43,575 bases of DNA. Origin: Rhodobacterales bacterium 32-67-9. Its GTDB lineage: Bacteria; Pseudomonadota; Alphaproteobacteria; Rhodobacterales; Rhodobacteraceae. Shown in pieces: positions 6,352-23,766 of the stretch. A program made the translations under genes and the position numbers. The stretch covers positions 1 to 43,575 of the forward strand of contig NCEA01000017.1 of NCBI GenBank assembly GCA_002280515.1. Reading direction: 5' to 3'. Under the pieces are notes generated by a model. That model saw only the letters and a list, made by a program, of their open reading frames with translations. It was not told the DNA's origin and did not search any database. Each line of letters starts with the position of its first letter. Position 1 is the stretch's first letter.

Positions 6352-6383
6352 CCCGGCGACACCCAGTTCGGAGCAAGGCCGCC

Positions 6384-8937: not shown

Positions 8938-10173
8938 CTAACCCCAGGTCCGGACCACGCCCGCTGACACCCAACGGTCGAAAACCGCGAGGGCTTCATC
9001 CGAGAACGCCTCATCGTTGATATGCGCGTCCAATTCGATCAGGCTGACATTGTCGGGACAGTTTGCCCGGATTGCGGCGCAAAATCGGGCAAGCCCTTCC
9101 GGATTAGACAGAGGTGCACCGTCCCGGTCCCACTCGTTTCCGCCGTGTTTCGGCATCAAAAAGACGGTCGGTCCCTGCGCCTGCGAGAGTTTTTCGCAGA
9201 TTTCCTCTGCGAGGCGCTCGCGCTCGGCCACCGTCAGCACGACGGATGTCAGCAGACGGTTATGCGCATGGGCGGGCCGATCCCGAAAATGCTCGGGCAG
9301 AGCCTGCCATCCGACCAGATCAACGAGGTCGTAGCACCCCATCGAGACAATCTGCGGCACGCCCCGGCGTCCGGCGTTGGTCATGCGATCCGCACCCGCC
9401 GTGATCGCTGATCCGAAGAGGTGATTGCCGACCTCCTGCGGGGCAAAATCCATCACTGCGGCAAACGCGCCCTCGACTGCCAGCGCCTCGAACGCGCGGC
9501 CGCCCATCCCAGTCGCGTGGAAAACGGCAACGTCGAACCCGCGCTCCTCAAGAGCGGGCTTCAATCGTACCATGTAGCGCAGCACGGTCTTGCCGAAACT
9601 TGTCATTCCGATCATCGGCCGGGCACCGGTGGGCTTTTCTACTGCCTGCGCGGCCCCCAGTACGGCACCGGCGGCCTGGGACAGTGCAGCCTTGCAGATC
9701 GGGTTGAGACCGTAGAGGCCACCCGCCCAAAGGATCATCTGGATATCCGGCGCGAGCCTGCCGGGCGGGATCATGGGTGAGAAGCTGACGGTCGAGACAA
9801 CGTACTTCGGGACACCGAGCGGCAGGGCATTGCACAGGTCGAGCGCAAGGTCGGTGCCCATCGAGCCACCGATCACAAGCACCCCGTCGAACCGCCGTTC
9901 GGAAAGAAGCCGGGCCGCAAGTGCAGACGCGCCCTTCGCCATGATCTGCATCGCGACATTCTCGTCGCCTGCCTCGATTGCGGCGGCGATCGACGAGCCA
10001 CCCGCCTCGGCGACGGTTGCCTTCGAAAAATCCACCGGTTCCGGCGGGTCGCCAAGCACACTGACATCCATGCTGAGAACCGCGCCGCCGAGGGTTTCGA
10101 TCCGCTCTTGCAGATAGCGAAGCTCGTCCGACTTGGTGTCGTAGGTTCCGACGATCAGGATGGTGGCGGTCAT
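8938..10173 (-). CDS. Tm-1-like ATP-binding domain protein (UPF0261 family)
   Basis: This 411-residue protein matches the UPF0261/Tm-1-like family along its whole length. The N-terminus ILIVGTYDTKSDELRYL, the glycine-rich GVLVIGGSMGTDLAL near residue 100, MIGMTSFGKTVLRYM near 200 and FHATGMGGRAFEAL near 225 are all family landmarks. The N-terminal domain binds nucleotide in the plant Tm-1 relative; the biochemical role of bacterial members is poorly defined. It is the last gene of the minus-strand operon, starting 11 bases after the kinase stop, so it is probably co-expressed with the candidate hydroxylysine genes. No specific reaction can be assigned. Confidence 0.88.
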   Translation of the reverse strand: MTATILIVGTYDTKSDELRYLQERIETLGGAVLSMDVSVLGDPPEPVDFSKATVAEAGGSSIAAAIEAGDENVAMQIMAKGASALAARLLSERRFDGVLVIGGSMGTDLALDLCNALPLGVPKYVVSTVSFSPMIPPGRLAPDIQMILWAGGLYGLNPICKAALSQAAGAVLGAAQAVEKPTGARPMIGMTSFGKTVLRYMVRLKPALEERGFDVAVFHATGMGGRAFEALAVEGAFAAVMDFAPQEVGNHLFGSAITAGADRMTNAGRRGVPQIVSMGCYDLVDLVGWQALPEHFRDRPAHAHNRLLTSVVLTVAERERLAEEICEKLSQAQGPTVFLMPKHGGNEWDRDGAPLSNPEGLARFCAAIRANCPDNVSLIELDAHINDEAFSDEALAVFDRWVSAGVVRTWG

Positions 10174-10184
10174 GTCTGATCCTT

Positions 10185-11144
10185 TCAGTCCGGGACGGGT
10201 GTGCGATTGCCGAGCCAGGCCCGGGCAAGCGTGGTGGCATTGGCGACAAAACGGTCATTTCGGGCGCCGGCGCCGGCCTCTCCCATGCGCTCGATGATCC
10301 AGCCGAGATAGGTGAACGAGCGGAGCATCAGGAACAGCGGCAGGTGCGTGCTGTCGATTGGCCGGACCTCGCGATAGCCCGACAGAAGAGCTGCAAGAAG
10401 CGCTGTGAAATCCGCTTCGCGCCGAACCGGGGTAAGAGCCGTGGCCAGGTCGAATATCCGAAAACCCCAGCCGCCGTCATCGAAGTCGATGAAGCTGGGG
10501 CCGTGGTCAGTCAGCAGGATGTTTTCGCGGACCAGATCGGCGTGAACAAGGCCGTGGTCGAGCTCCCCGGCCACCCCGGCAAGTTCTGAGCGTGCCGCGT
10601 CGCGGGCCGTCAGGATCAACCCGCGCGCCGCTGCGTCCAGGCCGGGGTTTTCCCAGAACCGGCCCCAAAGCGGGGTGTCGCCGACGAGACCGGAGACATC
10701 CCAGCGCGGACGTGTGAAGCCTTTGGGCGGGGTCCACCGGTCGCTGATATCGTGCAGCAATGCCATGCGGCGACCGACGTGGCGGAAGGTCGCCACGCGT
10801 TCTTCGGTTGTCTGGCTGCCGATCGCCTCGTTCAGTGGCCGGCCGGTCAGCCAGGGCACCAGCGTCATCTGAAACCCGTCCACCGCGACCGTATACCGCC
10901 CGTCCGGGGTTCGTTCGCCCGACAGGTCCACCGCGCCGTGGCGGCCCAGCCATTCGATCCACTGCATTTCGGAGCGCAACTCCGCTTCGCTCCGGTAGCC
11001 GGGGCGATGGAGGCGCAGGGCAAGGGACGGCCCGCCCGGTCTGTCGACCCGATAGACGCGGTTCTCGCGCGCGGCGACGAGTGTGATCTGCGCTGCCCCG
11101 AGGGCCCATTCCGTCCGGGCGATTGCGAGCGCGGCGTCGCTCAT
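10185..11144 (-). CDS. APH-fold kinase (candidate 5-hydroxylysine kinase)
   Basis: A 319-residue aminoglycoside-phosphotransferase/choline-kinase-fold protein. The catalytic Brenner loop HADLVRENILL and the metal-binding FIDFDDGGWGFRIFDLA are intact near residues 195-225. An N-terminal nucleotide-binding sheet is visible (ENRVYRVDRPGGPSLALRLHRP). In animals, an enzyme of this fold (HYKK/AGPHD1) phosphorylates 5-hydroxylysine and is followed by a class III PLP phospholyase. Here the start codon overlaps the stop of just such a PLP gene by four bases, which is strong context for the same pair. Other small-molecule alcohol substrates, for example homoserine or ethanolamine, remain possible. Confidence 0.75.
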   Translation of the reverse strand: MSDAALAIARTEWALGAAQITLVAARENRVYRVDRPGGPSLALRLHRPGYRSEAELRSEMQWIEWLGRHGAVDLSGERTPDGRYTVAVDGFQMTLVPWLTGRPLNEAIGSQTTEERVATFRHVGRRMALLHDISDRWTPPKGFTRPRWDVSGLVGDTPLWGRFWENPGLDAAARGLILTARDAARSELAGVAGELDHGLVHADLVRENILLTDHGPSFIDFDDGGWGFRIFDLATALTPVRREADFTALLAALLSGYREVRPIDSTHLPLFLMLRSFTYLGWIIERMGEAGAGARNDRFVANATTLARAWLGNRTPVPD

Positions 11145-12445
11145 GGCCGAAGCGGGGTGGAGGCAAGAACCTCGTCCAGCACCGAAAGAAGCTGCGCCGC
11201 GTTCGCCATCGAGAATGGCAGTGGCGGCCGGATCTTCAGGACATTGTAGTGGATGCCGAGGAAATTGATCAGGATCCCGCGCCGCCGCATCTCGTTTGCG
11301 ACCCGCTTGGTGAATGCCGTCGCCGGTTGCCTAGTTGCGCGGTCGAGCACCATCTCGGCTCCGAAGAACAGCCCCGCGCCGCGCACATCGCCGATACAGT
11401 CATGCCGCGTGGCCAGATCGCGCAGCCCCGCGTGCGCGAATGCGCCCACCGCCTCGGCGTTGGCCATCAACCCCTCTTCCTCGATCACGTCCAGCGTCGC
11501 CAGCGCCGCAGCGCAGGACACGGGGTTGCCGCCGAAGGTGTTGAAGTAGCGAAAGCCTTCTCGAAACGCCGCCATGATCTCGGGCGTGGTTGCCACGCCG
11601 CCGACGGGGTGGCCGTTCGCCATCGGTTTGCCCATGGTCACGATATCGGGCGTGAGGCCCGCGCGCTGGTGGCCCCACATGTGCGATCCGAGACGTCCGA
11701 AACCGGGCTGAACCTCGTCGGCGATGATAACCCCGCCGGCCTTGCGCACCGCGGCGGCGGCGGCGGCGAGCCACCCGGCCGGCAGGTCGGGGAACCCTTC
11801 ATTGGCGAAATAGGGGCAAAGGATCATCGCGCTGGTCCCATAGCCCGCCGCCTCAAGGCTCGCGATGGCGCGGCCGACCTCGGCCGCGAAGGCCTGTGCA
11901 TGGGCTTCGCCGGGCTCCCCGCCGAGGGGCCGGTAGCTGTCGGGGGCCGGCACGAAGCGGATGTTGGGCCAGGTTCCGCCCGGCGGCGGATTGGTGCGGG
12001 AAAGCTGCGCAACCGCCGTGGTGTTGCCGTGATAGGTGTGGTCGGTCGCGATGATCCCGGTCTTGCCGGTGATCGCCTGCGCCATCCTCAGCGCGATGTC
12101 GTTCGCCTCGGACCCGGTGCAGGTGAGAACCAGCTGCGACAACCCGCCTTTGAAGGTCGCCGTCAAGCGTTCGCCATAGTCCAGAATGGTTTCGTGCAGG
12201 TAGCGGGTATGGGTGTTCAGCGTTCCGGCCTGCCGGCAGATCGCCTCTACCACTTTCGGGTGGCAATGGCCGACATGGGGCACGTTGTTGTAGCAGTCGA
12301 GGTACTGGCGTCCCTCGTCGTCCCAGACAAGGACGCCCTTGCCCCGCACGATGTGGACCGGCTCTTCGTAGAAGGTCGGAACATTCGGGCCCAGGAGCGC
12401 CCGGCGCCGGTCGAGGAGGTTGGCGGCCGTCACAACTGGATCCAC
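11141..12445 (-). CDS. Class III PLP enzyme, AGXT2L-like (candidate 5-phosphohydroxylysine phospho-lyase)
   Basis: A 434-residue fold-type I class III enzyme. The PLP lysine is Lys273 in [14 protein letters not shown], with the preceding [15 protein letters not shown] block and GSEAND near residue 110. The segment [15 protein letters not shown] followed by [14 protein letters not shown] closely resembles animal AGXT2L1/AGXT2L2, which are ammonia-phospho-lyases rather than aminotransferases. With the adjoining kinase it would turn 5-phosphohydroxylysine into 2-aminoadipate 6-semialdehyde, ammonia and phosphate. It overlaps the aldehyde dehydrogenase gene by 16 bases upstream and the kinase gene by 4 bases downstream. 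An ordinary omega-aminotransferase role is the main alternative. Confidence 0.78.
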
Positions 12446-13914
12446 GCGGTCTTCAGGTCGGTGAACTTGTTGAGCGCGTGCAACGACTTGTCGTGCCCGT
12501 TGCCCGATTGCCCAACCCCCCCGAGCGGCACGGTCATGTCGGCGCCGCCATAGGTGTTGACATGAACGACCCCGGTGCGGATCCCGCGGATCATCCGGTG
12601 GGCGCGCGACAGGTTCGATGTCCAGACCCCGCCGGCGAGGCCGTAGGCGGTGCTGTTCGCGATCCGCATTGCGTCCGCCTCGTCCCGGAACGAGGTGACG
12701 GCAAGGACCGGCCCGAAGACCTCCTCCTGCGCCAGCGTCGCCTCCGGCGTGACCCGGGTGATGACCGTCGGCGCCATGTAGTATCCGCCGGTTTCCTCCA
12801 GGATACGGCCCCCACCGGTGACGACCTCGCCCCCCTCGGCGCGCGCTGTCTCGACATAGGCCAGATCCTGATCAAGCTGGACGGCAGAGTTCACCGCCCC
12901 CATCTCGGTTGTGATGTCCAAAGGATCGCCCACCCGCATCGCGGCGGCATGGCGCGCGACGGCGGCGGCAAAATCATCGTGGATGTCCTCTTCGACGAGC
13001 AGCCGGGAGCCCGCGACGCAAACCTGGCCGGAGTTGCGGAAGATCCCCATTGCCGCGACCCTGGCGGCACGATCGAGGTCAGGCGCGTCGGCGAAGACGA
13101 TGTGGGGCGACTTGCCGCCAAGCTCGAGGTAGACCCGCTTGAGGTTCGAGCGCGCAGAATACTCCAGAAGCCGCCGCCCGACCGGGCCGGAGCCGGTAAA
13201 TGTCAGGACATCGACATCCATCGACAACCCAAGCGCCTCGCCCACGACAGAGCCCTGTCCGGTGACGATATTGAGGACGCCGGGCGGCAGACCGGCCTCG
13301 TGCGCGAGGCCCGCAAGGCGGAGAAGCGAAAGCGATGCGGTTTCGGCCGGCTTCAATACGACGGAATTTCCGGCAGCAAGCGCGGGGCCAAGCTTCCAGG
13401 CCCCGATCATGAGCGGGAAGTTCCAGGGAACGATGGCGCCGACAACGCCCACCGGCTCACGGTGGACGAGGGCGAGCACATCGTCCGATGTCGGCGCGAC
13501 CTCGCCGTAGACCTTGTCAATCGCCTCGGCGTAGTAGCGGATGGTCGCGGCGGCCGACAATGGTTCGGCCTTCAGCGCCATGGAGATCTCGGTGCCGTTA
13601 TCGCGCACGCCGAGGACGGCGAGGGCCAGCGCTTCCGCCTCGATCAGGTCGGCCCAGCGGTGGAGCACCTTCTTGCGCGCGGCCGGCGGCTGGCCGGACC
13701 AGCGGCGATCCTCGTAGGCGGCGCGCGCGGCGGCGACCGCGGCCTTCATGTCATCGGCCGTGCCGCGTGCAATGGTGGTGAAGGCACGCCCGTCGATGGG
13801 CGAGATCACGTCAAGCGTCGCCCCGTCCGCTGCCGACCGTTCGACACCGTCGATGAACAACCCGCGAGGGGCAATGGGTGCGGCACGAAGCAGGTCGATC
13901 TGGCTCTGGTCCAT
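12430..13914 (-). CDS. NAD(P)-dependent aldehyde dehydrogenase
   Basis: A 494-residue aldehyde dehydrogenase of the PuuC/betaine-aldehyde type. Visible landmarks are VGAIVPWNFPLMIGAWKLGP, the general base Glu264 in LELGGKSPH, the catalytic Cys299 in SGQVCVAGSR, and EEVFGPVLAV. The ATG at 13914 is chosen: the frame continues to a Met at 14001, but that part overlaps the TctA gene and lacks homology. It lies 7 bases after the tctA stop and overlaps the PLP enzyme gene by 16 bases. In the proposed pathway it would oxidise 2-aminoadipate 6-semialdehyde to 2-aminoadipate. Family sequence alone does not fix the substrate. Confidence 0.85.
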   Translation of the reverse strand: MDQSQIDLLRAAPIAPRGLFIDGVERSAADGATLDVISPIDGRAFTTIARGTADDMKAAVAAARAAYEDRRWSGQPPAARKKVLHRWADLIEAEALALAVLGVRDNGTEISMALKAEPLSAAATIRYYAEAIDKVYGEVAPTSDDVLALVHREPVGVVGAIVPWNFPLMIGAWKLGPALAAGNSVVLKPAETASLSLLRLAGLAHEAGLPPGVLNIVTGQGSVVGEALGLSMDVDVLTFTGSGPVGRRLLEYSARSNLKRVYLELGGKSPHIVFADAPDLDRAARVAAMGIFRNSGQVCVAGSRLLVEEDIHDDFAAAVARHAAAMRVGDPLDITTEMGAVNSAVQLDQDLAYVETARAEGGEVVTGGGRILEETGGYYMAPTVITRVTPEATLAQEEVFGPVLAVTSFRDEADAMRIANSTAYGLAGGVWTSNLSRAHRMIRGIRTGVVHVNTYGGADMTVPLGGVGQSGNGHDKSLHALNKFTDLKTAWIQL

Positions 13915-13921
13915 TGTGGCC

Positions 13922-15439
13922 TCAGCGTTGTTGAGTGTCGTGCATGTCGTGATCCAGTTCGGGCAAACGGGCGCGATGCTCGCGGACGAGCGTGCGGACA
14001 TGCAGACCGATGACGAACAGGATGGAAAGGAAGATCAGGAAGGCGATGGGCCGGTCGATCATGTCGAGGGGTGTCTTGACCCGCGCCATGGCCGACCGCA
14101 GCTTGACCTCCATGATCCCGCCGAGAACCATGCCGAGGATGATCGGAACGATCGGAAGGTTCAGCCGCTTGAGGACCAACCCGAGGACGCCAAAGGCTGC
14201 CGCGACCATGCAGTCGGTGATGGAATTTCGCAGCGAGTAGACACCCACGAACGACAGCACCAGCACGATCATGCCGAGGAACCGCGTCGGCACGCGGATG
14301 ATGTAGGTCAGCGGCTTCGTCGCGACCATCAGGAAGACAATGACAATCAAGTTCAGAAGGATGAGAGAGAGGTAGAGTGCGTAGATGAAATCGAGATGTT
14401 GCTGGAAGAGCTGCGGTCCGGGAATGACGTTGTGAACGTAGAAGACCGACAGCATCATCGCGGTCAGCGCCTCGCCAGGGATGCCGAGCGCCAGAAGCGG
14501 GATCATGGCTGCGGCAGGCACCGCGTTGTTGGACGCTTCGGAGGCGATCAGCCCCTCGGGCGATCCTTTTCCGAAAAGCTCGGGGTTTTTCGAGGTTTTC
14601 TGGGCATATGTGTAAGACAGGAACTGGGCGGTGAATTCTCCTACGCCGGGGATCATGCCCATCAACACGCCGAACCCCGACGACACGGTAGCGACCCGCT
14701 TGTGGCGGAAAAGCTCCTTGAAGCCCATCGTGAGATCGCCGTCGAGCGACTGGGGATGCGGGCTGTCGTCCTTGTCGACCAGAAGCAGGAAGGCCTGGCT
14801 CAGCGCGAAGAGCCCGAGAACCACGACGATCAGGTTGATGCCGGAGCTGAGCCAGGTCGCGCCGAATGTGTAGCGCTGGGTGTAGGTTACGGGATCGAGC
14901 CCGACGGTTTGCAGGAATATGCCGAACATCGCCAGCATGCCCGCCGCCATGACCTGTCCGCGATGGGCGAGGATCACCAGAATGATCCCGAGAAGCGCGG
15001 CGAGGAAGATTTCGCGGCTGCCGAACATCGGCGCCACGATGGCGAGAACGGGGGAGAGAAAGATCAGGCACAGGATGCCGAACATTCCGCCCCAGAACGA
15101 AGCCGCATAGGCCAACGACACAGCCCGCCGAGCCTCTCCCCGCCGGGTCATCGGGTAACCGTCGTAGGTGGTCAGCGCGTTGACTGCGGTCCCCGGCGTG
15201 TTGATCAGCACCGCCGGCAGCGCGCCGCCATACATCGAAGAGCCATATATGCCGAGGAGCATCGTGAGCCCGACGATCGGTTGCAGCGAGAAGGTCGCCG
15301 GCAGCAGGATCGCGATGGCGACCGCCGGGCCAACGCCCGGTATAGCACCAATCACGACGCCGCCGACAGAGCCCACGAGCAATGCCAGGAGCACGTCCCA
15401 ACGCATAAGCATTACTGCGCCTGCGAGAAGATCTTCCAC
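13922..15439 (-). CDS. tctA: Tripartite tricarboxylate transporter large permease, TctA family
   Basis: A 505-residue integral membrane protein with about 12 hydrophobic segments. TctA-family motifs are present: GVVIGAIPGVGPAVAIAILLP near the N-terminus, the repeat-related GMIPGVGEFTAQFLSYTYAQK in the middle, and SEASNNAVPAAAMIPLLALGIPG. The start is taken as GTG at 15437-15439 with AAGGGA six bases upstream; the open frame runs further back only into tctB. The protein is the channel subunit of a secondary transporter driven by an ion gradient, with TctB and the periplasmic TctC. It is placed 11 bases after tctB. The likely substrate is the compound degraded by the co-transcribed enzymes. Confidence 0.92.
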   Translation of the reverse strand: MEDLLAGAVMLMRWDVLLALLVGSVGGVVIGAIPGVGPAVAIAILLPATFSLQPIVGLTMLLGIYGSSMYGGALPAVLINTPGTAVNALTTYDGYPMTRRGEARRAVSLAYAASFWGGMFGILCLIFLSPVLAIVAPMFGSREIFLAALLGIILVILAHRGQVMAAGMLAMFGIFLQTVGLDPVTYTQRYTFGATWLSSGINLIVVVLGLFALSQAFLLLVDKDDSPHPQSLDGDLTMGFKELFRHKRVATVSSGFGVLMGMIPGVGEFTAQFLSYTYAQKTSKNPELFGKGSPEGLIASEASNNAVPAAAMIPLLALGIPGEALTAMMLSVFYVHNVIPGPQLFQQHLDFIYALYLSLILLNLIVIVFLMVATKPLTYIIRVPTRFLGMIVLVLSFVGVYSLRNSITDCMVAAAFGVLGLVLKRLNLPIVPIILGMVLGGIMEVKLRSAMARVKTPLDMIDRPIAFLIFLSILFVIGLHVRTLVREHRARLPELDHDMHDTQQR

Positions 15440-15450
15440 CGGTGATCCCT

Positions 15451-15990
15451 TCAGAAATAGGTCAGCATGATCTGACGCAGCCCGTCTGGCAAAAGCTCGT
15501 AGACCGCACCTGACGGCAGCTTGACGTGCAGGAAGGATTTGAAGATGACGACCACGACAAGCGCGACGAGGCCCGCGCCGCTTAGCGCGAGCCCGCTGCG
15601 GTAGCCCGAACGCAGGACCAGCAACAGGGCCAGGAGAAGCGTTGACGGAAGATAGCCGAGCCACGGCACGGCGATCGCGTAGGCCAGAAACCAGAACGCG
15701 TATTCAATTGATTGCAACCAGATCGTGACCTCTCTCCAGCGGCCGGGAATGCGCTCTGACACCGCCGAACCGAAGAGGTGCAGCCCCGCGAAGAAGGCCA
15801 TGCCGGACAGCGAGATGGCGGGCCAGAACCGGGGCTGCGCGAAGAGCTTGTTGCCGTCCACAACCTGGGTTTGACTGCCGATCCTCGACAGCAGCAAGAG
15901 TGCGGAGAGGAAAAAGATCCAGGCAAAGACGATATCGCCGGGGCGGCGGTAACGTCTGAAGAGGGCCTGCAAGGTCCAGATGTAAGTCAC
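15451..15990 (-). CDS. tctB: Tripartite tricarboxylate transporter small permease, TctB family
   Basis: A 179-residue membrane protein with four hydrophobic segments, the size and pattern of TctB small subunits. The GTG at 15988-15990 is chosen as start because AAGGGAG lies eight bases upstream. A longer frame from an ATG at 16053 would add 21 poorly hydrophobic residues and run through the stem-loop downstream of tctC. The gene lies between tctC and tctA in the normal tctCBA order. Sequence conservation in this family is low, so the call rests on topology, size and position. Confidence 0.85.
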   Translation of the reverse strand: MTYIWTLQALFRRYRRPGDIVFAWIFFLSALLLLSRIGSQTQVVDGNKLFAQPRFWPAISLSGMAFFAGLHLFGSAVSERIPGRWREVTIWLQSIEYAFWFLAYAIAVPWLGYLPSTLLLALLLVLRSGYRSGLALSGAGLVALVVVVIFKSFLHVKLPSGAVYELLPDGLRQIMLTYF

Positions 15991-16025
15991 GCGCCGCGCT
16001 CCCTTCGGGATGACTTGTTGGGGTT

Positions 16026-16057
16026 GGGCGTGACGCCAAACTTGGGGCGTCACGCCC
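16026..16057 (-). promoter_or_regulatory. Stem-loop between tctC and tctB (processing or attenuation site)
   Basis: A perfect 12-bp inverted repeat lies at 16026-16037 and 16046-16057, with an 8-base loop, starting 14 bases after the tctC stop. No T tract follows in the direction of transcription, so it is unlikely to be a full terminator. In comparable transporter operons such hairpins let the binding protein be made in excess over the membrane subunits. Confidence 0.65.
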
Positions 16058-16071
16058 TGCGAATGCTGGAT

Positions 16072-17016
16072 TTACTGTTCCAGGATCTTGGCGACCCGCT
16101 GGACCGACTCGATATCGGAGGCAATCTGCGCCTTTGCCGCCTCGGCGTCCTGCCAGTAGATCAGCGCGCCGGTCTCAGCCGCAAGTTTTTGCGCCCGCTC
16201 GGACATGACGGTCTTTTGCGCCACGGCGACGATCTTGTCGCGGACATCCTGCGGGGTGTCCTTGCGGACGAAAAGACCGTTCCACAGCGCAAGATTCAGG
16301 TCCGGCGCCAATTCCGCGACGGTCGGGGTGTCCGGCGTCAGCAGGATCCGCTCGGCCCCGATGGACGCGAGCACCTTCACGTCGTCGAGGCAGGGCAGGA
16401 TGAGTTGCAGCGTGGTGTTGATCACGTCGACGTCGCCCGAGGCGAGCGAATTGCAGTCGAGCGCGTCGAACGCGGCGTCGGAGGCGTAGGAAAAGCCCAT
16501 CTCCTTCGCCAGCGCCATGGTGACGCGGGTCGGGATCAGCGGCGCGCCGAAGTGGCCGAGCGCGACGTCGTTCGACTTCGCATATTCGGCCAGACCCGCC
16601 ATGTCGTCATAGGGCGCGTCACCCGCCGCCGCGATGACGAAGGGGTAGGTGAGGAAGTTGCCGAGAGGCTCGAACGGATCGGGGTTCAACTCGGGAATGC
16701 CGACATTCGGGCCAATGACCGGGACCGCGATGATGAAGGAGCCAACCGTGTAGCCGTCGGCGGGCGCATTGGCCACCTCCACGGCGCCGGGGAACGGGCC
16801 GCCGCCGCCGCCAGGCTTGTTTACCACCGCCGCCGGAACACCATATGCGGCCTGGAAATCCTCGGCGATCATCCGCGTGAGAACATCTTCAAGGTCGCCC
16901 GGCGGCCAGGGCACCACGAATTCGACAGGCTTTTCCGGGTATTCTGCCCGGCTCACGCCCGGCAGGCACAGGGTGGCCATCGCGGCTGCCCCCATCAGGA
17001 TTCCAAGTCTGCGCAT
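16072..17016 (-). CDS. tctC: Tripartite tricarboxylate transporter substrate-binding protein, TctC/Bug family
   Basis: A 314-residue periplasmic binding protein. The N-terminus is a signal peptide (MRR charge, hydrophobic LGILMGAAAMATLCLPG, likely cleavage after SRA at residue 24), and the mature part starts EYPEKPVEFVVPWPPG, typical of Bug proteins. A glycine-rich NKPGGGGG and the ADGYTVG motif near residues 75-95 are family landmarks. The ATG at 17016 is preferred to one at 17031 because GGGAGG lies just upstream. It heads the operon tctC-tctB-tctA-aldehyde dehydrogenase-PLP enzyme-kinase-UPF0261. The ligand is unknown; a hydroxylated amino acid fits the operon. Confidence 0.92.
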   Translation of the reverse strand: MRRLGILMGAAAMATLCLPGVSRAEYPEKPVEFVVPWPPGDLEDVLTRMIAEDFQAAYGVPAAVVNKPGGGGGPFPGAVEVANAPADGYTVGSFIIAVPVIGPNVGIPELNPDPFEPLGNFLTYPFVIAAAGDAPYDDMAGLAEYAKSNDVALGHFGAPLIPTRVTMALAKEMGFSYASDAAFDALDCNSLASGDVDVINTTLQLILPCLDDVKVLASIGAERILLTPDTPTVAELAPDLNLALWNGLFVRKDTPQDVRDKIVAVAQKTVMSERAQKLAAETGALIYWQDAEAAKAQIASDIESVQRVAKILEQ

Positions 17017-17111: not shown

Positions 17112-17942
17112 ATGCAGGAGAACCAGCTCTCGATGTCTGTCGTCGTCAAAGCATTCGAACTTTTGGGCTTCTTTTCCGTCGATCGCCCGGAATTGGGTCT
17201 TTCAGAGCTTCGCCGGCTGGCCGGACGCGACAAGGCGACGACCTACCGGCACCTTGAAGCGCTCGAATCGGTCGGCCTTCTGGAGCAGAATCCCGTAACG
17301 AAGCAGTACCGGATCGGCCCTGTGGTCCTCGGCCTCGCACAGATTCGCGAAGCTACGACGCCACGCCGCGCGGGCGCGCTCACTGCTTTGGCGCGGCTGG
17401 CGGAGCGGACGGGAGAGACGGCGCATGTCTCGCTCCTGTCCGGGGCGGCGCTCCACACGCTCGCGGTGCAGGAATCGTCTCGCCACGCCACCCGGGTGAT
17501 CATCAATGAAAGCAATCTTCCCCTGCACGCAACTTCGCAGGGTCTCGCCATCCTGGCGTTCGGGGGGGCCGACCTGATGCAGGCCGCGCGGCGCCGACTG
17601 ATCCGGTTCACCGAGGCGACACCGACGACCGATGAGGCGCTGGATGCGGCGGTGTCTGTCGCGCGGCAGACCGGTTTCGGCGTATCGCGCAACGGCTTTG
17701 AGGACGGCGTGTACGGGATTGGCGCGCCTGTCTTCGATCACACGGGCGCGGTCGCGGGTGCGGTCGCGGTCGCGAGCGTGTCGAGTCGGATGACCGAAGA
17801 CCTCGGACAGGAAGTCCGCGCCGGCCTCGTCGAGGCGGCGCGTGCAATCTCCTCCAATTGGGGCGGGCAGATCCCTGCCGCACTCGAAACACTCTGGGCC
17901 CGAACGCTGGCCCCCTATTCAGATCAGGAGCGCTCGGCATGA
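17112..17942 (+). CDS. IclR-family transcriptional regulator
   Basis: A 276-residue regulator with an N-terminal winged helix (SVVVKAFELLGFFSVDRPELGLSELRRLAGRDKATTYRHL in separate blocks at residues 8-50). The IclR effector domain follows, including INESNLPLHATSQGLAILAF and the GFGVSRNGFEDGVYGIGAPVFD block. The start is uncertain: ATG at 17112 is used here, ATG at 17133 is possible, and the earlier ATG at 17044-17048 region falls inside the palindromic operator and is unlikely. Its stop overlaps the ATG of the next aminotransferase gene by four bases. It probably regulates its own operon and the divergent tctC operon. The effector is unknown. Confidence 0.88.
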   Translation: MQENQLSMSVVVKAFELLGFFSVDRPELGLSELRRLAGRDKATTYRHLEALESVGLLEQNPVTKQYRIGPVVLGLAQIREATTPRRAGALTALARLAERTGETAHVSLLSGAALHTLAVQESSRHATRVIINESNLPLHATSQGLAILAFGGADLMQAARRRLIRFTEATPTTDEALDAAVSVARQTGFGVSRNGFEDGVYGIGAPVFDHTGAVAGAVAVASVSSRMTEDLGQEVRAGLVEAARAISSNWGGQIPAALETLWARTLAPYSDQERSA

Positions 17943-19297
17943 AGGATTCAAACTTCCTGAAGGAAAACAACGCGCGGCACTTTTGGCATCCGATGACGTC
18001 GCCGGCCTTCAGCCGGGCGAATCCGCCAAAGATCATCACCGGCAGCCACGGAGTCTACATCCGTGACATCGACGGGCACGAAGCTGTCGATGCGGTCGGT
18101 GGCCTGTGGAACGTGAACCTCGGGTATTCCTGCGCACCGGTGAAAGCAGCCATCGCGGCGCAACTCGATACCCTGCCCTACTACTCGACCTTTCGGGGCA
18201 CCACGAACGATGCGGTGATCGAACTCTCCTACGAGCTCGCGCGGTTCTTCGAACCGGACGGGCTGAGCCGCGCGTTCTTCACATCGGGCGGGTCGGACAG
18301 CGTCGAGACGGCGCTGAAACTCGCCCGGCAGTACCACAAGCTGCGTGGCGAGCCGGGGCGGATCAAGTTCCTGAGCCTGAAGAAAGGCTATCACGGCACC
18401 CATTTCGCCGCCGCGAGCGTGAACGGCAACGCGAATTTCCGCGCCGCGTACGAGCCACTGATGCCTGGGTGCTACCACATTCCAGCGCCTTACACCTATC
18501 GCAACCCGTTCAACGAAAGCGACCCGGCGCGACTGGCACAGCTTTGCGCCGCGGCGCTGGAGGACGAGATTGCGTTCCAGGGCGCGTCCACCATCGCGGC
18601 TTTCATCATGGAGCCGATCCTGGGCGCGGGCGGTGTGATCCCGCCGCACCCGACCTTCCTCCCGATGGTGCGCGACATCTGCGACCGCCACGGCATCCTT
18701 CTGATTACCGACGAGGTGATCACCGCATACGGCCGCACGGGCGCATGGTCGGGCGCGCGGCTTTGGGGGGTGAAGCCTGACATGATGTGCACCGCCAAGG
18801 CCATCACCAACGGCTTTTTCCCGTTTGGCGCGGTGATGATCGGCGCGAAAGTGGTCGAGGCCTTCGAGAAGGATGAGACCGGCACCATCGGTCACGGCTA
18901 CACCTATTCCGGTCATCCGGTCGGGGCCGCGGCCGCGCTCGCCTGCCTTGCGGAAACCGAGCGGTTGAACGTGGTGGACAACGCGGCGGCGCGCGGCACG
19001 CAGCTTTACGAGGGGTGCAAGGCACTGATGGCCAGGCACGACCTGATCGGCGATGTTCGCGGTGGCCACGGGCTGATGACCGCAATCGAACTCGTCAGCG
19101 ACCGCGCAACCAAGCGGCCGGCTGGCGGCGACGTCACGACCATCGTGCAGGAAGCGGCGTATCAGGCCGGGGCGATGGTTCGGGTCTCGGGCCCGCACGT
19201 GATCCTGTCGCCGTCCCTGATCCTGAGCAAGGCGGAGGCGGCCATCATCCTGTCCGCGCTCGAGGCCGGCCTGACAGCAGCGGAAGCGGCGGCATGA
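17939..19297 (+). CDS. Class III aminotransferase (omega-transaminase type)
   Basis: A 452-residue fold-type I PLP enzyme of the beta-alanine/pyruvate aminotransferase group. The opening ARHFWHPMTSPAF, the GSDSVETALKLARQYH motif near residue 118, LLITDEVITAYGRTG near 255 and the PLP lysine in CTAKAITNGFFPFGAV near 283 are all present. This is distinct from the AGXT2L-like PLP enzyme at 11141. It is translationally coupled to the regulator upstream (ATGA at 17939-17942) and to the MBL gene downstream (ATGA at 19294-19297). The amino donor is unknown; an omega-amino acid or 2-aminoadipate-type compound from the neighbouring pathway is plausible. Confidence 0.88.
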   Translation: MKDSNFLKENNARHFWHPMTSPAFSRANPPKIITGSHGVYIRDIDGHEAVDAVGGLWNVNLGYSCAPVKAAIAAQLDTLPYYSTFRGTTNDAVIELSYELARFFEPDGLSRAFFTSGGSDSVETALKLARQYHKLRGEPGRIKFLSLKKGYHGTHFAAASVNGNANFRAAYEPLMPGCYHIPAPYTYRNPFNESDPARLAQLCAAALEDEIAFQGASTIAAFIMEPILGAGGVIPPHPTFLPMVRDICDRHGILLITDEVITAYGRTGAWSGARLWGVKPDMMCTAKAITNGFFPFGAVMIGAKVVEAFEKDETGTIGHGYTYSGHPVGAAAALACLAETERLNVVDNAAARGTQLYEGCKALMARHDLIGDVRGGHGLMTAIELVSDRATKRPAGGDVTTIVQEAAYQAGAMVRVSGPHVILSPSLILSKAEAAIILSALEAGLTAAEAAA

Positions 19298-20154
19298 GCA
19301 CGGATTACGTCGCACTCCTCGGCACCAAGGGCGGTCCTGCCATTCGCCCCGGCTCGACCATGCCGACCTCCTCGCTTCTGTCCCTTGCGGGGCGGCGGAT
19401 TGTGGTGGACTGCGGGCTGGGTGTCACACGGGGGCTGATCGATCAGGGAATGCAGTTGCGGGATCTCGACCTGATCTTCGTCACCCATCTGCATTCCGAC
19501 CATTATCTCGACCTCGGGCCGCTGTTGCATACCGCCTGGACGGCGGGGCTGAAGTCGTCCGTCGAAGTCTGGGGGCCTGCCGGGCTGGAGGCCTACTGGG
19601 CGGGATTCCTGGCCTCGATGCGGGCGGATATTGATGTCAGGATCGAAGACGAAGGACGGCCCGACCTGCGCACGCTGGTGAGTATTCATGTGATCGAGGA
19701 AGGGGTGGTTCTCGAACGCGAAGGGCTTCGCGTCGACGCGGTCCGCGTGGTCCATCCACCGCTGGTCGATTGCTTTGCGCTCGCTTTTTCAGGGGCTGGC
19801 AAGCGCGTCGTCTTTTCCGGCGATACCGCATTCATGCCGGCTTTGGCCGATTTCGCGCTCGGTGCCGATCTGCTGATTCACGAAGCGATGCTGGGCGCGG
19901 CGCTTCCGGCGCTGCTGGCGCGCATCGGCAATGGCAGCGAAAAGCTCATGGAGCATTGGCTCCGCTCTCACACGATGGCCGACGAGGCCGCCCGGTTGGC
20001 GGAGATGGCCGGAGTGAAGCGGCTTGCACTGCACCACCTGATCCCCTCGGACGATCCCGCCTACACCGAACAACACTGGCTGGACGCGGTGCGTCCGCAT
20101 TGGTCCGGCGACTTCATCCTCGGGCGCGACGGATTGCGGATAAACCTTGGCTAA
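19294..20154 (+). CDS. MBL-fold metallo-hydrolase (RNase Z / arylsulfatase-like group)
   Basis: A 286-residue metallo-beta-lactamase-fold protein. The metal site THLHSDHYLD (His65, His67, Asp69, His70) is intact, with later ligands in VVFSGDTAF and the terminal LALHHLIPSD. The N-terminus LLGTKGGPAIRPGSTMPTSSLL is typical of the group related to RNase Z and lactone or ester hydrolases. The longer open frame starting at 19015 lies within the aminotransferase gene; the ATG at 19294 overlaps its stop. It converges on the hpaR-type gene with only three bases between. The substrate is unknown; a lactone or lactam product of the aminotransferase pathway is one possibility. Confidence 0.85.
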   Translation: MSTDYVALLGTKGGPAIRPGSTMPTSSLLSLAGRRIVVDCGLGVTRGLIDQGMQLRDLDLIFVTHLHSDHYLDLGPLLHTAWTAGLKSSVEVWGPAGLEAYWAGFLASMRADIDVRIEDEGRPDLRTLVSIHVIEEGVVLEREGLRVDAVRVVHPPLVDCFALAFSGAGKRVVFSGDTAFMPALADFALGADLLIHEAMLGAALPALLARIGNGSEKLMEHWLRSHTMADEAARLAEMAGVKRLALHHLIPSDDPAYTEQHWLDAVRPHWSGDFILGRDGLRINLG

Positions 20155-20821: not shown

Positions 20822-21223
20822 ATGCCACATCTGAAGATCGAATATTCGTCAGGCCTTGAGGCGCGCACCGACATAGCTGTTTTGTGTGACGCGCTGCATG
20901 GTGCGGTGGTCGAGGCGGGCATCTTCCCAATCGCCGGCATTCGTGTGCGGGCTTATCGCGCCGATCACAGCATCGTGGCCGACGGCCTGGCCGAGAACGA
21001 TTTTGCCGCTCTGACGCTCAGCGTCGGAGCAGGGCGCTCGACCGAGGCTCTCAAGGCGGCGGGGGAGGCGATCTTCAAGGCGGCGCGGGTCGCTCTCGCC
21101 GGGCCGCTCGCCACGCCGCATTTCGCCCTTTCGCTGGAGATCCGGGTGGTCGACCCGGAATTGAGCTGGAAGGATACCCCGATCCATGCCCGCCTCAAGG
21201 GCGCAGCCGAGGACAGAAGATGA
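20822..21223 (+). CDS. hpaF: 5-carboxymethyl-2-hydroxymuconate delta-isomerase
   Basis: A 133-residue protein of the CHMI branch of the tautomerase superfamily. Proline directly follows the initiator Met (MPHLKIEYSSGLE), so the catalytic N-terminal Pro1 is present. Later landmarks are GIRVRAYRADHSIVADG and FALSLEIRVVDPELSWK. It isomerises 5-carboxymethyl-2-hydroxymuconate in the homoprotocatechuate pathway. The ATG at 20822, with GGGAGG upstream, is chosen over an earlier in-frame codon at 20804 because Pro must be at position 2. It overlaps hpaE by four bases and is the first gene of the operon. Confidence 0.9.
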   Translation: MPHLKIEYSSGLEARTDIAVLCDALHGAVVEAGIFPIAGIRVRAYRADHSIVADGLAENDFAALTLSVGAGRSTEALKAAGEAIFKAARVALAGPLATPHFALSLEIRVVDPELSWKDTPIHARLKGAAEDRR

Positions 21224-22731
21224 GCGTTCTGAACGACAACATTGCGCGCGCGCAGGGTTACATGGCGCGTTTTGCTGCCGAGGGTGTACTCAACCACATT
21301 GGCGGCGAAACTGTTCCGGCGCTTTCCGGGCAGTGTTTCGAAACAATCTCGCCCGTCGATCTGAAGCCGTTGGCGAAGGTGGCCAAAAGCGGTGCGGCCG
21401 ACATTGACCGTGCAGTTGCGGTGGCGACCGAGGCGTTCAAGACCTGGGGCAAGATGCCGGGCGCGGAGCGACGCAAGGTCTTGTTGAAGGTGGCAGATGC
21501 CATCGAGGCGCGCGCCGAGGAGATTGCCTTCACCGAGTGCATGGACACCGGGCAGGCGCTGCGCTTCATGTCGAAGGCCGCGCTGCGCGGGGCGGAGAAT
21601 TTTCGCTTTTTTGCGGCCAAGGCGCCGCAGGCGGAAGACGGGCTGAGCCTGCGCAATGCCGATCAGGTGAACATCACCTCGCGTCGCCCGATTGGCCCGG
21701 TCGGGGTGATCACGCCGTGGAACACGCCGTTCATGCTCTCCACATGGAAGATCGCGCCCGCGCTCGCAGCGGGCTGCACGGTGGTGCACAAACCGGCCGA
21801 ATTCTCGCCGATGACGGCCAAGCTCCTAGTGGAAATCGCCGAGGAGGCGGGGCTGCCGAAAGGCGTGCTGAACCTCGTCAACGGCTTTGGAGAAGATGCG
21901 GGCAGGGCGCTGACCGAACATCCCGGGATCAAGGCAATTGCTTTCGTGGGCGAAAGCCGCACCGGCTCGATGATCATGGCGCAGGGGGCGAAAACCCTCA
22001 AGCGCGTGCATTTTGAACTCGGCGGCAAGAACCCGGTGATCGTGTTCGACGATGCCGACCTCGATCGTGCGGTCGATGCGGCGACCTTCATGATCTATTC
22101 GCTCAACGGGGAGCGTTGCACATCGTCGTCTCGCCTGCTCGTGCAGGACACGATCTACGCCGACTTCACCGCCCGCGTGGCCGAGGTGGCCAACCGCATC
22201 AAGGTCGGCCATCCGCTCGACCCCGAAACGGTGGTTGGCCCGCTGATCCACCCCGAGCACGAAGCCAAGGTGCTGAGCTATTTTGCCAAGGCCCGCGAAG
22301 AGGGCGCCACAATCGCGGCAGGGGGCGAGAAGGTGGGCGCCGCAGGCTGCTTCGTCCGCCCGACGCTTTTCACCCGGGCGAGCAACGACATGGCTGTGGC
22401 GCAGGAAGAAATCTTTGGCCCGGTGCTGACCACGATTCCGTTCAAGGACGAAGCCGAGGCGCTCGAGATCGCCAACGGTGTGCAATACGGCCTTGCCGCC
22501 TATCTATGGACCAACGATCTCGGCCGCGCCATGCGCATGACCGATGCGCTCGAAGCGGGCATGATGTGGGTGAATTCGGAGAATGTCCGCCACCTGCCGA
22601 CGCCCTTTGGCGGCGTCAAGGCCTCTGGCATCGGGCGCGACGGCGGCGAATGGTCGTTCGATTTCTACATGGAAACCGTCAACGTCTGCCTGCCGCGCCG
22701 CCTGCATCAGGTTCCGAAACTCGGCGGCTAA
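21220..22731 (+). CDS. hpaE: 5-carboxymethyl-2-hydroxymuconate semialdehyde dehydrogenase
   Basis: A 503-residue aldehyde dehydrogenase. The N-terminus has the HpaE-type leader (NIARAQGYMARFAAEGVLNHIGG in part). Catalytic features are the cofactor loop VGVITPWNTPFMLSTWKI, Glu266 in FELGGKNPV and Cys300 in NGERCTSSSRLLV. The reaction oxidises the ring-cleavage semialdehyde to 5-carboxymethyl-2-hydroxymuconate using NAD. It is coupled to hpaF by an ATGA overlap and followed after 54 bases by the VOC-type dioxygenase gene. The pathway context removes most doubt about the substrate. Confidence 0.92.
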   Translation: MSVLNDNIARAQGYMARFAAEGVLNHIGGETVPALSGQCFETISPVDLKPLAKVAKSGAADIDRAVAVATEAFKTWGKMPGAERRKVLLKVADAIEARAEEIAFTECMDTGQALRFMSKAALRGAENFRFFAAKAPQAEDGLSLRNADQVNITSRRPIGPVGVITPWNTPFMLSTWKIAPALAAGCTVVHKPAEFSPMTAKLLVEIAEEAGLPKGVLNLVNGFGEDAGRALTEHPGIKAIAFVGESRTGSMIMAQGAKTLKRVHFELGGKNPVIVFDDADLDRAVDAATFMIYSLNGERCTSSSRLLVQDTIYADFTARVAEVANRIKVGHPLDPETVVGPLIHPEHEAKVLSYFAKAREEGATIAAGGEKVGAAGCFVRPTLFTRASNDMAVAQEEIFGPVLTTIPFKDEAEALEIANGVQYGLAAYLWTNDLGRAMRMTDALEAGMMWVNSENVRHLPTPFGGVKASGIGRDGGEWSFDFYMETVNVCLPRRLHQVPKLGG

Positions 22732-22785: not shown

Positions 22786-23766
22786 ATGCCCGTTCCGGCC
22801 CCGAACCTCTATCCGCCCTTCAACATCATCCGCCTCAGCCATGCCGTTTTCGGCGTGACGGACATGGCCGCGAGCCGTGCCTTCTACGTCGACACGCTCG
22901 GCCTTCAGGTGACCGACGAGGACGAGAACCATATCTTCCTGCGCGCCATGGAAGAGCGCGGGCACCATTCGCTTGTCCTGGTAAAATCGCCCGGGAGCAA
23001 CGTCCGCTCGCTTGCCTTCAAGCTCTACGACGAGGCGGAGCTTGACAAGGCCGCAGTCTGGTTCGCGGCGCAGGGTCATGCGACCTCGTGGGTGGAGCGC
23101 CCCTATCAGGGCCGCACCCTGCGCACGCATGACTGCTTCGGTATGCCGATCGAGCTCTATTTCAGGATGGACCGTCTGGCGCCGGTTCACCAGAAATACG
23201 CACTCTACAAAGGTGTGAAGCCGCTCAGGATCGACCATTTCAACTGCTTCGCCTCGGACGTGGACAAGGCGGTGGCCTTCTACAATTCCATCGGCTTTCG
23301 GGTGACCGAATATACAGAGGACGAGGAAAGCGGAAAGCTCTGGGCTGCCTGGACACACCGCAAGGGCGGCGTTCATGACATAGCCTTCACAAATGGCACC
23401 GGCCCGAGGTTGCACCACACCGCGTTCTGGGTGCCGACGCCCCTCAACATCATCGACTTGTGCGACCTCATGGCGACCACCGGCTACCTGACCAATATCG
23501 AGCGCGGCCCCGGGCGGCACGGTATATCCAACGCCTTCTTCCTTTACATTCTCGACCCCGACGGGCACCGGATCGAGATCTACTGCTCGGACTATCAGAC
23601 CGTGGACCCGGACCTTGAGCCGATCAAATGGGATCTGAAGGACCCGCAGCGCCAGACGCTTTGGGGCGCCCCCGCGCCGCGCAGCTGGTTCGAGAACGGA
23701 TCGGTCTTCCAGGGCATCACGCCGGTCGAGGCCGCACTGAAAGCCACGCCGATCGTCGCGCCCTGA
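22786..23766 (+). CDS. 3,4-dihydroxyphenylacetate 2,3-dioxygenase, type I (VOC) extradiol family
   Basis: A 326-residue protein with two VOC modules (about 15-135 and 145-275), the layout of type I extradiol dioxygenases. The closest recognisable relatives are the homoprotocatechuate dioxygenases of Brevibacterium and Arthrobacter: GPRLHHTAFWV, IERGPGRHGISNAF and LYILDPDGHRIEIY are shared. The iron or manganese ligands are probably His151, His210 and Glu264. Within the operon it would open the ring of homoprotocatechuate to the semialdehyde used by HpaE. GGGAGA precedes the ATG. The operon also contains an unrelated LigB-type enzyme for the same reaction (26266-27123). Confidence 0.88.
   Translation: MPVPAPNLYPPFNIIRLSHAVFGVTDMAASRAFYVDTLGLQVTDEDENHIFLRAMEERGHHSLVLVKSPGSNVRSLAFKLYDEAELDKAAVWFAAQGHATSWVERPYQGRTLRTHDCFGMPIELYFRMDRLAPVHQKYALYKGVKPLRIDHFNCFASDVDKAVAFYNSIGFRVTEYTEDEESGKLWAAWTHRKGGVHDIAFTNGTGPRLHHTAFWVPTPLNIIDLCDLMATTGYLTNIERGPGRHGISNAFFLYILDPDGHRIEIYCSDYQTVDPDLEPIKWDLKDPQRQTLWGAPAPRSWFENGSVFQGITPVEAALKATPIVAP

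What the first reader, a model, noticed from the sequence alone, without database searches (positions are those of the whole stretch)
8938..17016. Candidate hydroxylysine-degradation operon with its own tripartite transporter
One minus-strand operon holds tctC-tctB-tctA, an aldehyde dehydrogenase, an AGXT2L-like PLP enzyme, an APH-fold kinase and UPF0261, with overlaps of 16 and 4 bases between the three enzyme genes. In animals 5-hydroxylysine is broken down by an APH-fold kinase (HYKK) and an AGXT2L2 phospholyase to aminoadipate semialdehyde, which an aldehyde dehydrogenase oxidises. The same three fold types in one transcript, in pathway-compatible order, suggest a bacterial version. The [14 protein letters not shown] resemblance of the PLP enzyme to AGXT2L is seen directly; the substrate is inferred.
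Basis: partly seen in the sequence, partly recalled or inferred. Interest (0 to 1): 0.78.

Follow-up and report, generated by a model that had tools for sequence, protein, structure and literature searches.

The report
Kinase-lyase module for aromatic amine breakdown
The gene cluster is real, but its company across many bacteria points to breakdown of octopamine- or noradrenaline-like aromatic amines rather than the amino acid hydroxylysine, by a phosphorylate-then-eliminate route that I did not find described for such compounds.

Summary
In detail: one minus-strand operon (8938-17016) with tctC-tctB-tctA, ALDH, AGXT2L-type lyase, APH kinase and UPF0261, with 16- and 4-base overlaps. The lyase falls with the phospholyases (A1RDF1, human ETNPPL), so kinase + phospholyase + ALDH is a sound reading. 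Hydroxylysine as substrate is not supported. The operon belongs to a larger conserved unit: a divergent IclR and omega-aminotransferase (AT2), then a homoprotocatechuate (hpa) cluster. At least two core hpa genes lie near the orthologous lyase in 28 of 80 loci, in several layouts, against 0 of 41 loci of other lyase clades. Across 198 family-level genomes, 19 of 21 with lyase+AT2 carry the hpa marker CHMI versus 53 of 177 others (p 9e-8); AT2 alone 66 of 83 versus 6 of 115. Best model: AT2 deaminates tyramine/dopamine, while the kinase-lyase pair turns octopamine/noradrenaline-type beta-hydroxyamines into the same arylacetaldehyde; ALDH and hpa finish the job. Tct, UPF0261, ALDH and AT2 also occur near hpa without the pair, which looks like an add-on. 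Against it: outside the rhizobial clade only 4 of 49 loci show close linkage, and lyases without AT2 show no enrichment. The substrate is inferred; no assay was possible.

The parts
8938..10173 (-). UPF0261 (Tm-1-like ATP-binding) protein; part of the conserved unit, role unknown
   Evidence: PF06792/PF23189 and NF002676 over cut-off; in 65 of 80 orthologous loci; also near hpa without the kinase-lyase pair in 5 of 10 loci
10185..11144 (-). APH-fold kinase, proposed arylethanolamine (octopamine/noradrenaline-type) kinase
   Evidence: PF01636; closest solved 6ef6, 120 bits; found in the stretch in 77 of 80 loci
11141..12445 (-). AGXT2L-type PLP phospholyase, proposed to give arylacetaldehyde + phosphate + ammonia
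   Evidence: 5g4i 412 bits, 6tor 361 bits; tree; PLP lysine K273 kept
12430..13914 (-). Aldehyde dehydrogenase (KauB/PuuC-like), proposed arylacetaldehyde dehydrogenase
   Evidence: 58 of 80 loci
13922..15439 (-). TctA, large membrane subunit of the tripartite transporter
   Evidence: PF01970, start
15451..16053 (-). TctB, small membrane subunit (start may be 15990)
   Evidence: PF07331
16072..17016 (-). TctC, binding protein with an acidic PPGDLED loop in place of the AAGGPTD-type loop of BugD
   Evidence: PF03401; of 41 TctC rows 34 have PPGDLED exactly, 3 a one-residue variant, 4 were not matched by my pattern; BugD loop
17112..17942 (+). IclR-type regulator, divergent from tctC
   Evidence: PF01614/PF09339; 60 of 80 loci
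17939..19297 (+). Class III omega-aminotransferase AT2 (PRK07481), proposed tyramine/dopamine transaminase
   Evidence: NF005683 719 bits over cut-off 575; CHMI in 66 of 83 genomes with AT2 vs 6 of 115 without
19294..20154 (+). Metallo-beta-lactamase-fold hydrolase after AT2
   Evidence: PF12706; also beside AT2 in L075 and L090
20158..20604 (-). HpaR regulator of homoprotocatechuate degradation
   Evidence: TIGR02337 over cut-off
20822..21223 (+). HpaF, 5-carboxymethyl-2-hydroxymuconate isomerase
   Evidence: PF02962 over cut-off
21220..22731 (+). HpaE, 5-carboxymethyl-2-hydroxymuconate semialdehyde dehydrogenase
   Evidence: TIGR02299 764 bits, cut-off 638
22786..23766 (+). Extradiol dioxygenase, HpaD type
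   Evidence: PF00903; the 76%-identical L127 protein scores TIGR02295 HpaD over cut-off
23818..24668 (+). HpaG-like FAA hydrolase (start approximate)
   Evidence: PF01557
24662..25456 (+). HpaH, hydratase (tblastn extent)
   Evidence: 63% identity to the L127 HpaH, which scores TIGR02312 over cut-off
25472..26230 (+). HpaI-type aldolase
   Evidence: TIGR02311 338 bits, below its cut-off 369
26266..27123 (+). Second 3,4-dihydroxyphenylacetate 2,3-dioxygenase (HpaD_Fe)
   Evidence: TIGR02298 477 bits, cut-off 316
28053..29600 (-). FAD monooxygenase, possible ring hydroxylase of this pathway (start approximate)
   Evidence: PF01494; a relative lies between HpaR and AT2 in L193 and one beside homogentisate genes in L075

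Best explanation
The operon is the upper part of a pathway for aromatic ethylamines that ends in the homoprotocatechuate (hpa) ring-cleavage route. AT2 would transaminate plain aryl-ethylamines (tyramine, dopamine) to arylacetaldehydes. For beta-hydroxylated ones (octopamine, noradrenaline; N-methyl forms after demethylation) transamination would leave the side-chain hydroxyl; instead the APH kinase phosphorylates that hydroxyl and the AGXT2L-type lyase removes phosphate and ammonia, giving the same arylacetaldehyde. The ALDH oxidises it to the arylacetate, and HpaD/E/F/G/H/I cleave 3,4-dihydroxyphenylacetate to central metabolites. TctABC (an APC permease in rhizobia) imports the amine or its precursor; IclR regulates. 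Shown: operon, family memberships, conserved linkage and co-occurrence with hpa. Inferred: substrates, the order of reactions, transport and regulation. UPF0261 has no assigned role.
For: (1) Local linkage: of 80 orthologous loci, 28 hold at least 2 core hpa genes in the fetched stretch and 32 at least 1; 24 of 31 in the rhizobial clade. In one annotated plasmid, hpaR, CHMI, hpaE, hpaD, gabD, FAA hydrolase, hpaH, hpaI follow the kinase directly. Loci of other lyase clades (47-53% identity): 0 of 41 with any core hpa gene, 38 of them at least 15 kb. (2) Different layouts, so linkage probably arose more than once: pair between ALDH or TctA and UPF0261 (window, L056, L068, L191, L192); after AT2 (L187-L190); AT2-lyase-kinase then hpa (rhizobia); lyase-kinase-HpaF-HpaE on two 7-kb contigs without AT2 (L077, L196); at the end of the hpa genes (L195). 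(3) Co-occurrence in 198 genomes from 197 genera: lyase+AT2 within 15 kb, 19 of 21 with strong CHMI against 53 of 177 others (Fisher p 8.7e-8); AT2 66 of 83 against 6 of 115 (p 4e-29). (4) Chemistry nearby: DOPA-decarboxylase-like gene in 10 of 80 loci, 7 of them hpa-linked (L087 copy: 7xin DOPA decarboxylase, 367 bits) and in 0 of 41 controls; HpaB in 11, all hpa-linked. (5) Lyase is a phospholyase by sequence and tree.
Against: No substrate has been tested. 52 of 80 loci have fewer than 2 core hpa genes in the stretch, though 57 of 80 have full flanks; outside the rhizobial clade only 4 of 49 pass, and 0 of 5 near relatives L032-L036 within about 9.5 kb. Lyase genes without AT2 nearby show no significant CHMI enrichment (15 of 32 vs 57 of 166, p 0.13), so this lyase family need not have one substrate. 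Fisher tests treat genomes as independent, and only the 8 best first-look candidates per genome were scored in the protein searches. The pair could ride along in an amine cluster while acting on something else. Supporting genes are patchy: FeaR-like regulator in 3 of 80 loci (1 hpa-linked), DAO-GcvT demethylase-like gene in 7 (0 hpa-linked). Tct transporters are known for carboxylates (recalled). The window's genome gave no match to a rhizobial HpaB (no positive control; genome 94% complete) and the window has no decarboxylase match. UPF0261 is unexplained.
Confidence: 0.62

Rival explanations
1. Hydroxylysine degradation: the kinase acts on 5-hydroxylysine, the lyase gives aminoadipate semialdehyde, the ALDH oxidises it.
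For: Same three fold types as the animal HYKK / AGXT2L2 route (the animal route is recalled); hydroxyproline genes lie at 321-3622, another collagen amino acid; a saccharopine-dehydrogenase-like gene at 3669-4751.
Against: Linkage and co-occurrence are with hpa. ALDH is KauB/PuuC-like. The saccharopine-like gene has no match in any of 163 related and control loci; the hydroxyproline genes match only in L101 (all three) and L041 (the oxidase). Tct, UPF0261 and ALDH occur near hpa without the pair.
Confidence: 0.07
2. Small amino alcohols: the kinase-lyase pair degrades ethanolamine or 1-amino-2-propanol to acetaldehyde or propanal, and sits near hpa only because both are amine-catabolic.
For: Best solved relatives are the phospholyase A1RDF1 and ETNPPL, and 6ef6, recalled to be a microcompartment aminopropanol kinase. 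Lyases without AT2 show no CHMI enrichment.
Against: It does not explain the pair inside or beside hpa genes in different layouts. Residues around 204-221 differ from the ETNPPL/fused type. The 5g4i and 6tor lines lie outside the window's 90-row clade, whose own support is 91.
Confidence: 0.13
3. The pair acts on another beta-hydroxyamine whose product also enters arylacetate metabolism (for example phenylethanolamine or meta-hydroxylated analogues), with homogentisate instead of hpa as the exit in some strains.
For: HgmA- and FAH-type genes with an FAD monooxygenase near the lyase in L075 and L085; FAD monooxygenase also in the window.
Against: HgmA is seen in only 2 of 80 loci, two or more core hpa genes in 28.
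Confidence: 0.12

Closest known systems
Animal hydroxylysine kinase HYKK + PHYKPL (AGXT2L2) route (recalled; the primary paper was not held)
   Same: APH-fold kinase followed by an AGXT2L-family phospholyase giving an aldehyde, then an aldehyde dehydrogenase
   Different: Linked to homoprotocatechuate catabolism; ALDH of KauB/PuuC type; I recognised no lysine or aminoadipate gene in the conserved company, but ran no dedicated search for such genes
Bacterial phospholyase A1RDF1 (5g4i) and human ETNPPL (6tor)
   Same: Same PLP family: 412 and 361 bits, one clade, K404/[RK]406 pattern
   Different: Window enzyme is in a separate 90-row clade with its own loop at 204-221; context of those two was not examined
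6ef6 APH-fold kinase (recalled as the aminopropanol kinase of a mycobacterial microcompartment)
   Same: Closest solved kinase, 120 bits; amino-alcohol kinase logic
   Different: Distant; no microcompartment family appeared for the window ORFs that were scanned against Pfam
Homoprotocatechuate (hpa) pathway with tyramine/phenylethylamine entry (FeaR/FeaB type; the entry is recalled)
   Same: HpaR, D, E, F, G, H, I types in the window; FeaR-like regulator in 3 of 80 loci
   Different: Entry proposed by a transaminase and a kinase-phospholyase pair rather than an amine oxidase
Octopamine dehydratase (EC 4.2.1.87) and synephrine dehydratase (EC 4.2.1.88), recalled, not looked up
   Same: Same net reaction on beta-hydroxy-arylethylamines to 4-hydroxyphenylacetaldehyde
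   Different: Here proposed as two steps using ATP; whether genes are known for these EC numbers was not checked

Membership tests
AGXT2L-type phospholyase | Closer to solved phospholyases than to transaminases or decarboxylases | tested here: met
   412 and 361 bits vs 220 for the next; 119-row clade, support 99
AGXT2L-type phospholyase | PLP lysine kept; Lys where dialkylglycine decarboxylase has its Arg in the KI[RK]PP motif | tested here: met
   K273 in 54 of 54 rows; position 404 K in 53 of 54 vs R in DGD; the meaning of the change is inferred
AGXT2L-type phospholyase | Phosphate and ammonia release from a phospho-amine | not testable with these tools
   needs an enzyme assay
Hydroxylysine pathway (HYKK/PHYKPL) | Kinase and lyase group with HYKK and PHYKPL | not testable with these tools
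Hydroxylysine pathway (HYKK/PHYKPL) | ALDH of the aminoadipate-semialdehyde (ALDH7) type | tested here: not met
   KauB 512 and PuuC 505 bits; no ALDH7 name in the best 60 of 264
Hydroxylysine pathway (HYKK/PHYKPL) | Lysine/aminoadipate genes in conserved company | tested here: inconclusive
   the window's saccharopine-like gene has no match in 163 loci; no dedicated lysine-gene set was searched
Homoprotocatechuate pathway | D, E, F, G, H, I set next to the operon | tested here: met
   window 20158-27123; HpaI below its NCBIfam cut-off; HpaG named from Pfam only, and HpaH and the first HpaD from their L127 relatives
Homoprotocatechuate pathway | 4-hydroxyphenylacetate 3-hydroxylase (HpaBC) in the genome | tested here: inconclusive
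   no match to a rhizobial HpaB in a 94%-complete genome; FAD monooxygenase at 28053-29600 might replace it
Tripartite tricarboxylate transporter (TTT) | TctA, TctB, TctC all present | tested here: met
   PF01970, PF07331, PF03401
Tripartite tricarboxylate transporter (TTT) | Carboxylate as ligand | not testable with these tools
   acidic PPGDLED loop hints at a cationic ligand, inference only

The most novel reading that the evidence does not exclude
Bacteria degrade octopamine/noradrenaline-type hormones by phosphorylating the side-chain hydroxyl and eliminating phosphate and ammonia with an AGXT2L-family phospholyase, a pair grafted several times onto the tyramine/dopamine-homoprotocatechuate pathway; this would supply genes for the old octopamine/synephrine dehydratase activities and, with an acidic-loop TctC, a tripartite transporter for an amine.
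Probability: 0.5. Interest if true: 0.75.

Novelty: new variant of a known kind. Interest (0 to 1): 0.6.

Why it matters
If right, it gives a gene-level route by which soil, plant-associated and marine Alphaproteobacteria consume octopamine- and catecholamine-type compounds (plant phenolic amines, invertebrate and vertebrate hormones), and a new substrate class for the kinase + phospholyase strategy known from hydroxylysine and ethanolamine. It makes the route directly testable in laboratory strains that carry the genes (Ruegeria pomeroyi DSS-3, Rhizobium). It would also correct labels such as 'homoserine kinase' and 'aspartate aminotransferase family protein' that these genes carry in public records.

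Tried and rejected
Hydroxylysine: rejected as best reading on context. Small amino alcohols: kept as a rival. GABOB, isoserine and hydroxyputrescine were considered from the carboxylate-type transporter and the KauB/PuuC ALDH, and dropped because nothing recognised in the conserved company supports them. The second kinase-lyase locus of the genome (G000:C19, L031) and its relatives, some near purine and beta-hydroxyaspartate genes, showed no hpa link and served as controls. Residue comparison of the lyase separates the subfamily from the ETNPPL-like type but does not name a substrate. Promoter/terminator scan: promoter-like sites 2 found against 1.9 expected, terminator-like 11 against 7.6, uninformative. 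An early ORF clustering mis-called the strand at 1442-3553, so it could not speak about the hydroxyproline genes; one search replaced it. Literature: 10 searches, of which I saw listings with titles and abstract beginnings only; no paper was opened. None of the listed titles or abstract beginnings describes a kinase-phospholyase route for octopamine or noradrenaline, but the library holds open-licence papers only. No structure prediction was run.


Full report
OBSERVATION. Family assignments are over cut-off. The window is contig C16 of a 3.7 Mb, 60-contig genome, 94% complete. Its taxon is not named; three of the five nearest rows in the lyase tree are Roseobacteraceae.

THE PLP ENZYME. Its best solved relatives are the phospholyase A1RDF1 (5g4i, 412 bits) and human ethanolamine-phosphate phospho-lyase (6tor, 361 bits); the next is dialkylglycine decarboxylase at 220 bits. 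In a tree of 123 rows it falls in a 90-row clade (support 91) inside a 119-row clade (support 99) that also holds 5g4i and 6tor; AT2, two 33%-identity aminotransferases and dialkylglycine decarboxylase lie outside (quick method, long branches flagged by the tool). The kinase's best solved relative is 6ef6 at 120 bits; that this is a microcompartment aminopropanol kinase is recalled. The ALDH is nearest KauB and PuuC. So the logic 'phosphorylate, eliminate, oxidise' stands; the substrate does not follow from it.

THE UNIT IS LARGER THAN REPORTED. In 5 of 5 near-relative loci the operon genes come with the IclR gene and the omega-aminotransferase AT2. AT2 scores 719 bits on PRK07481 (cut-off 575). 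Beyond AT2 the window holds an MBL-fold gene and an hpa cluster: HpaR (over cut-off), HpaF (Pfam), HpaE (over), HpaD-type, HpaG-like (Pfam), HpaH (63% to a TIGR02312 protein), HpaI-type (below cut-off) and HpaD_Fe (over).

LOCAL LINKAGE. By tblastn with fixed identity thresholds, 28 of 80 hold at least 2 of 8 core hpa genes in the stretch, 32 at least 1, and HpaR is in 23. Of these 80, 57 have at least 21 kb; 24 of those 57 pass. The rhizobial clade gives 24 of 31; the other 49 give 4. Loci with AT2 give 26 of 57, without AT2 2 of 23. The 5 near relatives L032-L036 give 0 within the stretch, although in two of them CHMI lies on the same contig about 10 kb (G008) and 23 kb (G021) away. Controls from other lyase clades, 47-53% identical to the window's: 0 of 41 with any core hpa gene, HpaR or decarboxylase; 38 of the 41 are at least 15 kb. 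A further 4 A2-type loci (60-63% identity, L037-L040) gave 0. A draw of 398 phylum genomes added 10 loci with 57-67% identity, of which 3 have two or more core hpa genes (L134, L135, L137) and one more HpaR (L140). The annotated plasmid of Rhizobium ruizarguesonis reads 4-hydroxyphenylacetate hydroxylase, flavin reductase, APC permease, IclR, Tm-1-like (UPF0261), HAD, two class III enzymes, phosphotransferase, hpaR, CHMI, hpaE, hpaD, gabD, FAA hydrolase, hpaH, hpaI. Against: Ruegeria pomeroyi DSS-3 carries AT2, ALDH, lyase, kinase, UPF0261 (SPO_RS21615-21635) with no hpa gene named within 20 kb, and Gemmobacter fulvus has AT2-lyase-kinase with none named within 14 kb.

LAYOUTS. The pair lies between ALDH or TctA and UPF0261 (window, L056, L068, L191, L192), after AT2 (L187-L190), between AT2 and hpa (rhizobia), directly before HpaF/HpaE on two 7-kb contigs (L077, L196), and at the end of the hpa genes (L195). 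Ten hpa-linked AT2 loci with no lyase in the stretch (L177-L186) still show Tct genes in 7, UPF0261 in 5 and the ALDH in 4. Hence the pair looks like an optional module on an amine-hpa base unit, and the transporter is not 'its own'. These 20 loci were chosen because AT2 or lyase lay near CHMI, so they describe layouts and are not a test of linkage.

GENOME-LEVEL TEST. In 198 genomes of the family (197 genera), CHMI (PF02962, silent in 14 of 14 control genomes) was found in 81; I set aside 9 genomes whose only matches had E above 1e-20, leaving 72. AT2 at E<=1e-190 is in 83, lyase at E<=1e-160 in 53, lyase and AT2 within 15 kb in 21. Lyase+AT2: 19 of 21 with CHMI vs 53 of 177 (Fisher p 8.7e-8). 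AT2: 66 of 83 vs 6 of 115 (p 4e-29). Lyase overall: 34 of 53 vs 38 of 145 (p 1.3e-6); with the 9 weak genomes counted in, 35 of 53 vs 46 of 145 (p 1.5e-5). Lyase without AT2: 15 of 32 vs 57 of 166 (p 0.13, not significant). Within 15 kb, lyase genes near CHMI number 10 and AT2 genes near CHMI 20. The tests do not correct for relatedness, and the protein searches scored only the 8 best first-look candidates per genome. In the 61 nearest genomes CHMI is in 12, among them 5 of the 6 that carry the operon.

CHEMISTRY OF THE COMPANY. A PF00282 gene between HpaD and HpaG in L087 is a DOPA/aromatic amino acid decarboxylase by its best solved relatives (367 bits); such a gene is in 10 of 80 loci, 7 of them hpa-linked, and in 0 of 41 controls. 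HpaB is in 11 (all hpa-linked), an APC permease in 26 (22 hpa-linked), a DAO-GcvT (sarcosine-oxidase-like) protein in 7 (none hpa-linked), a FeaR-like regulator in 3 (1 hpa-linked; the L095 copy scores 170 bits, below the cut-off 199). The first three fit aryl-ethylamines; the last two are weak hints. The AGXT2L reaction as I recall it needs a hydroxyl beta to the amine, which octopamine, noradrenaline and synephrine have; this step is inference. The TctC loop PPGDLED replaces the AAGGPTD-type loop of BugD; of 41 rows 34 have it exactly, 3 with one change, and 4 (three of them 43-44% identical TctC) were not matched by my pattern; one of the two other TctC proteins of the same genome has AGGGSD, the other was not read. 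That hints at a cationic ligand.

VERDICT. The link of this operon to arylacetate (hpa) catabolism is well supported; octopamine/noradrenaline-type substrates are the most likely reading (0.62); hydroxylysine is unlikely (0.07). No substrate was tested. It is a new variant of a known kind: a kinase-phospholyase pair with a new likely substrate class.

Noticed in passing
window 321-3622 (+): D-amino acid dehydrogenase-like gene, 4-hydroxyproline epimerase and trans-3-hydroxy-L-proline dehydratase (last two over NCBIfam cut-offs): a hydroxyproline cluster that does not travel with the operon (only L101 has all three).
   Followed up: partly
window 3669-4751 (-): Small saccharopine-dehydrogenase-like protein; closest solved is PH1688 at 64 bits; no match in 163 related and control loci. 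Function open.
   Followed up: partly
window 6300-8420 (+): OYE/FadH-type flavoprotein (mycofact_OYE_2, below cut-off); another OYE-type protein occurs with a DAO-GcvT demethylase-like protein in 7 of 80 loci.
   Followed up: partly
window 28053-31371: FAD monooxygenase, MBL-fold protein and MarR regulator; a similar group lies beside homogentisate dioxygenase and fumarylacetoacetase-like genes next to the operon in L075.
   Followed up: partly
L031 (G000:C19:22000-36500): Second kinase + lyase pair in the same genome, 55% identical lyase; some relatives of it lie near allantoin/purine and beta-hydroxyaspartate (bhcBCD) genes. Its substrate may differ.
   Followed up: partly
L058:628-1989 and eight other loci: Glutamine-synthetase-like gene (PF00120) in 9 of 80 loci, 8 of which also have AT2; perhaps a gamma-glutamyl-amine synthetase.
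   Followed up: no
window 8938-10173 and orthologues: UPF0261 of subfamily PRK02399.1-4 travels with the aromatic-amine unit, in 5 of 10 hpa-linked loci even without the kinase-lyase pair; closest solved 9mpy and Tm-1. Its role here is a good open question.
   Followed up: partly
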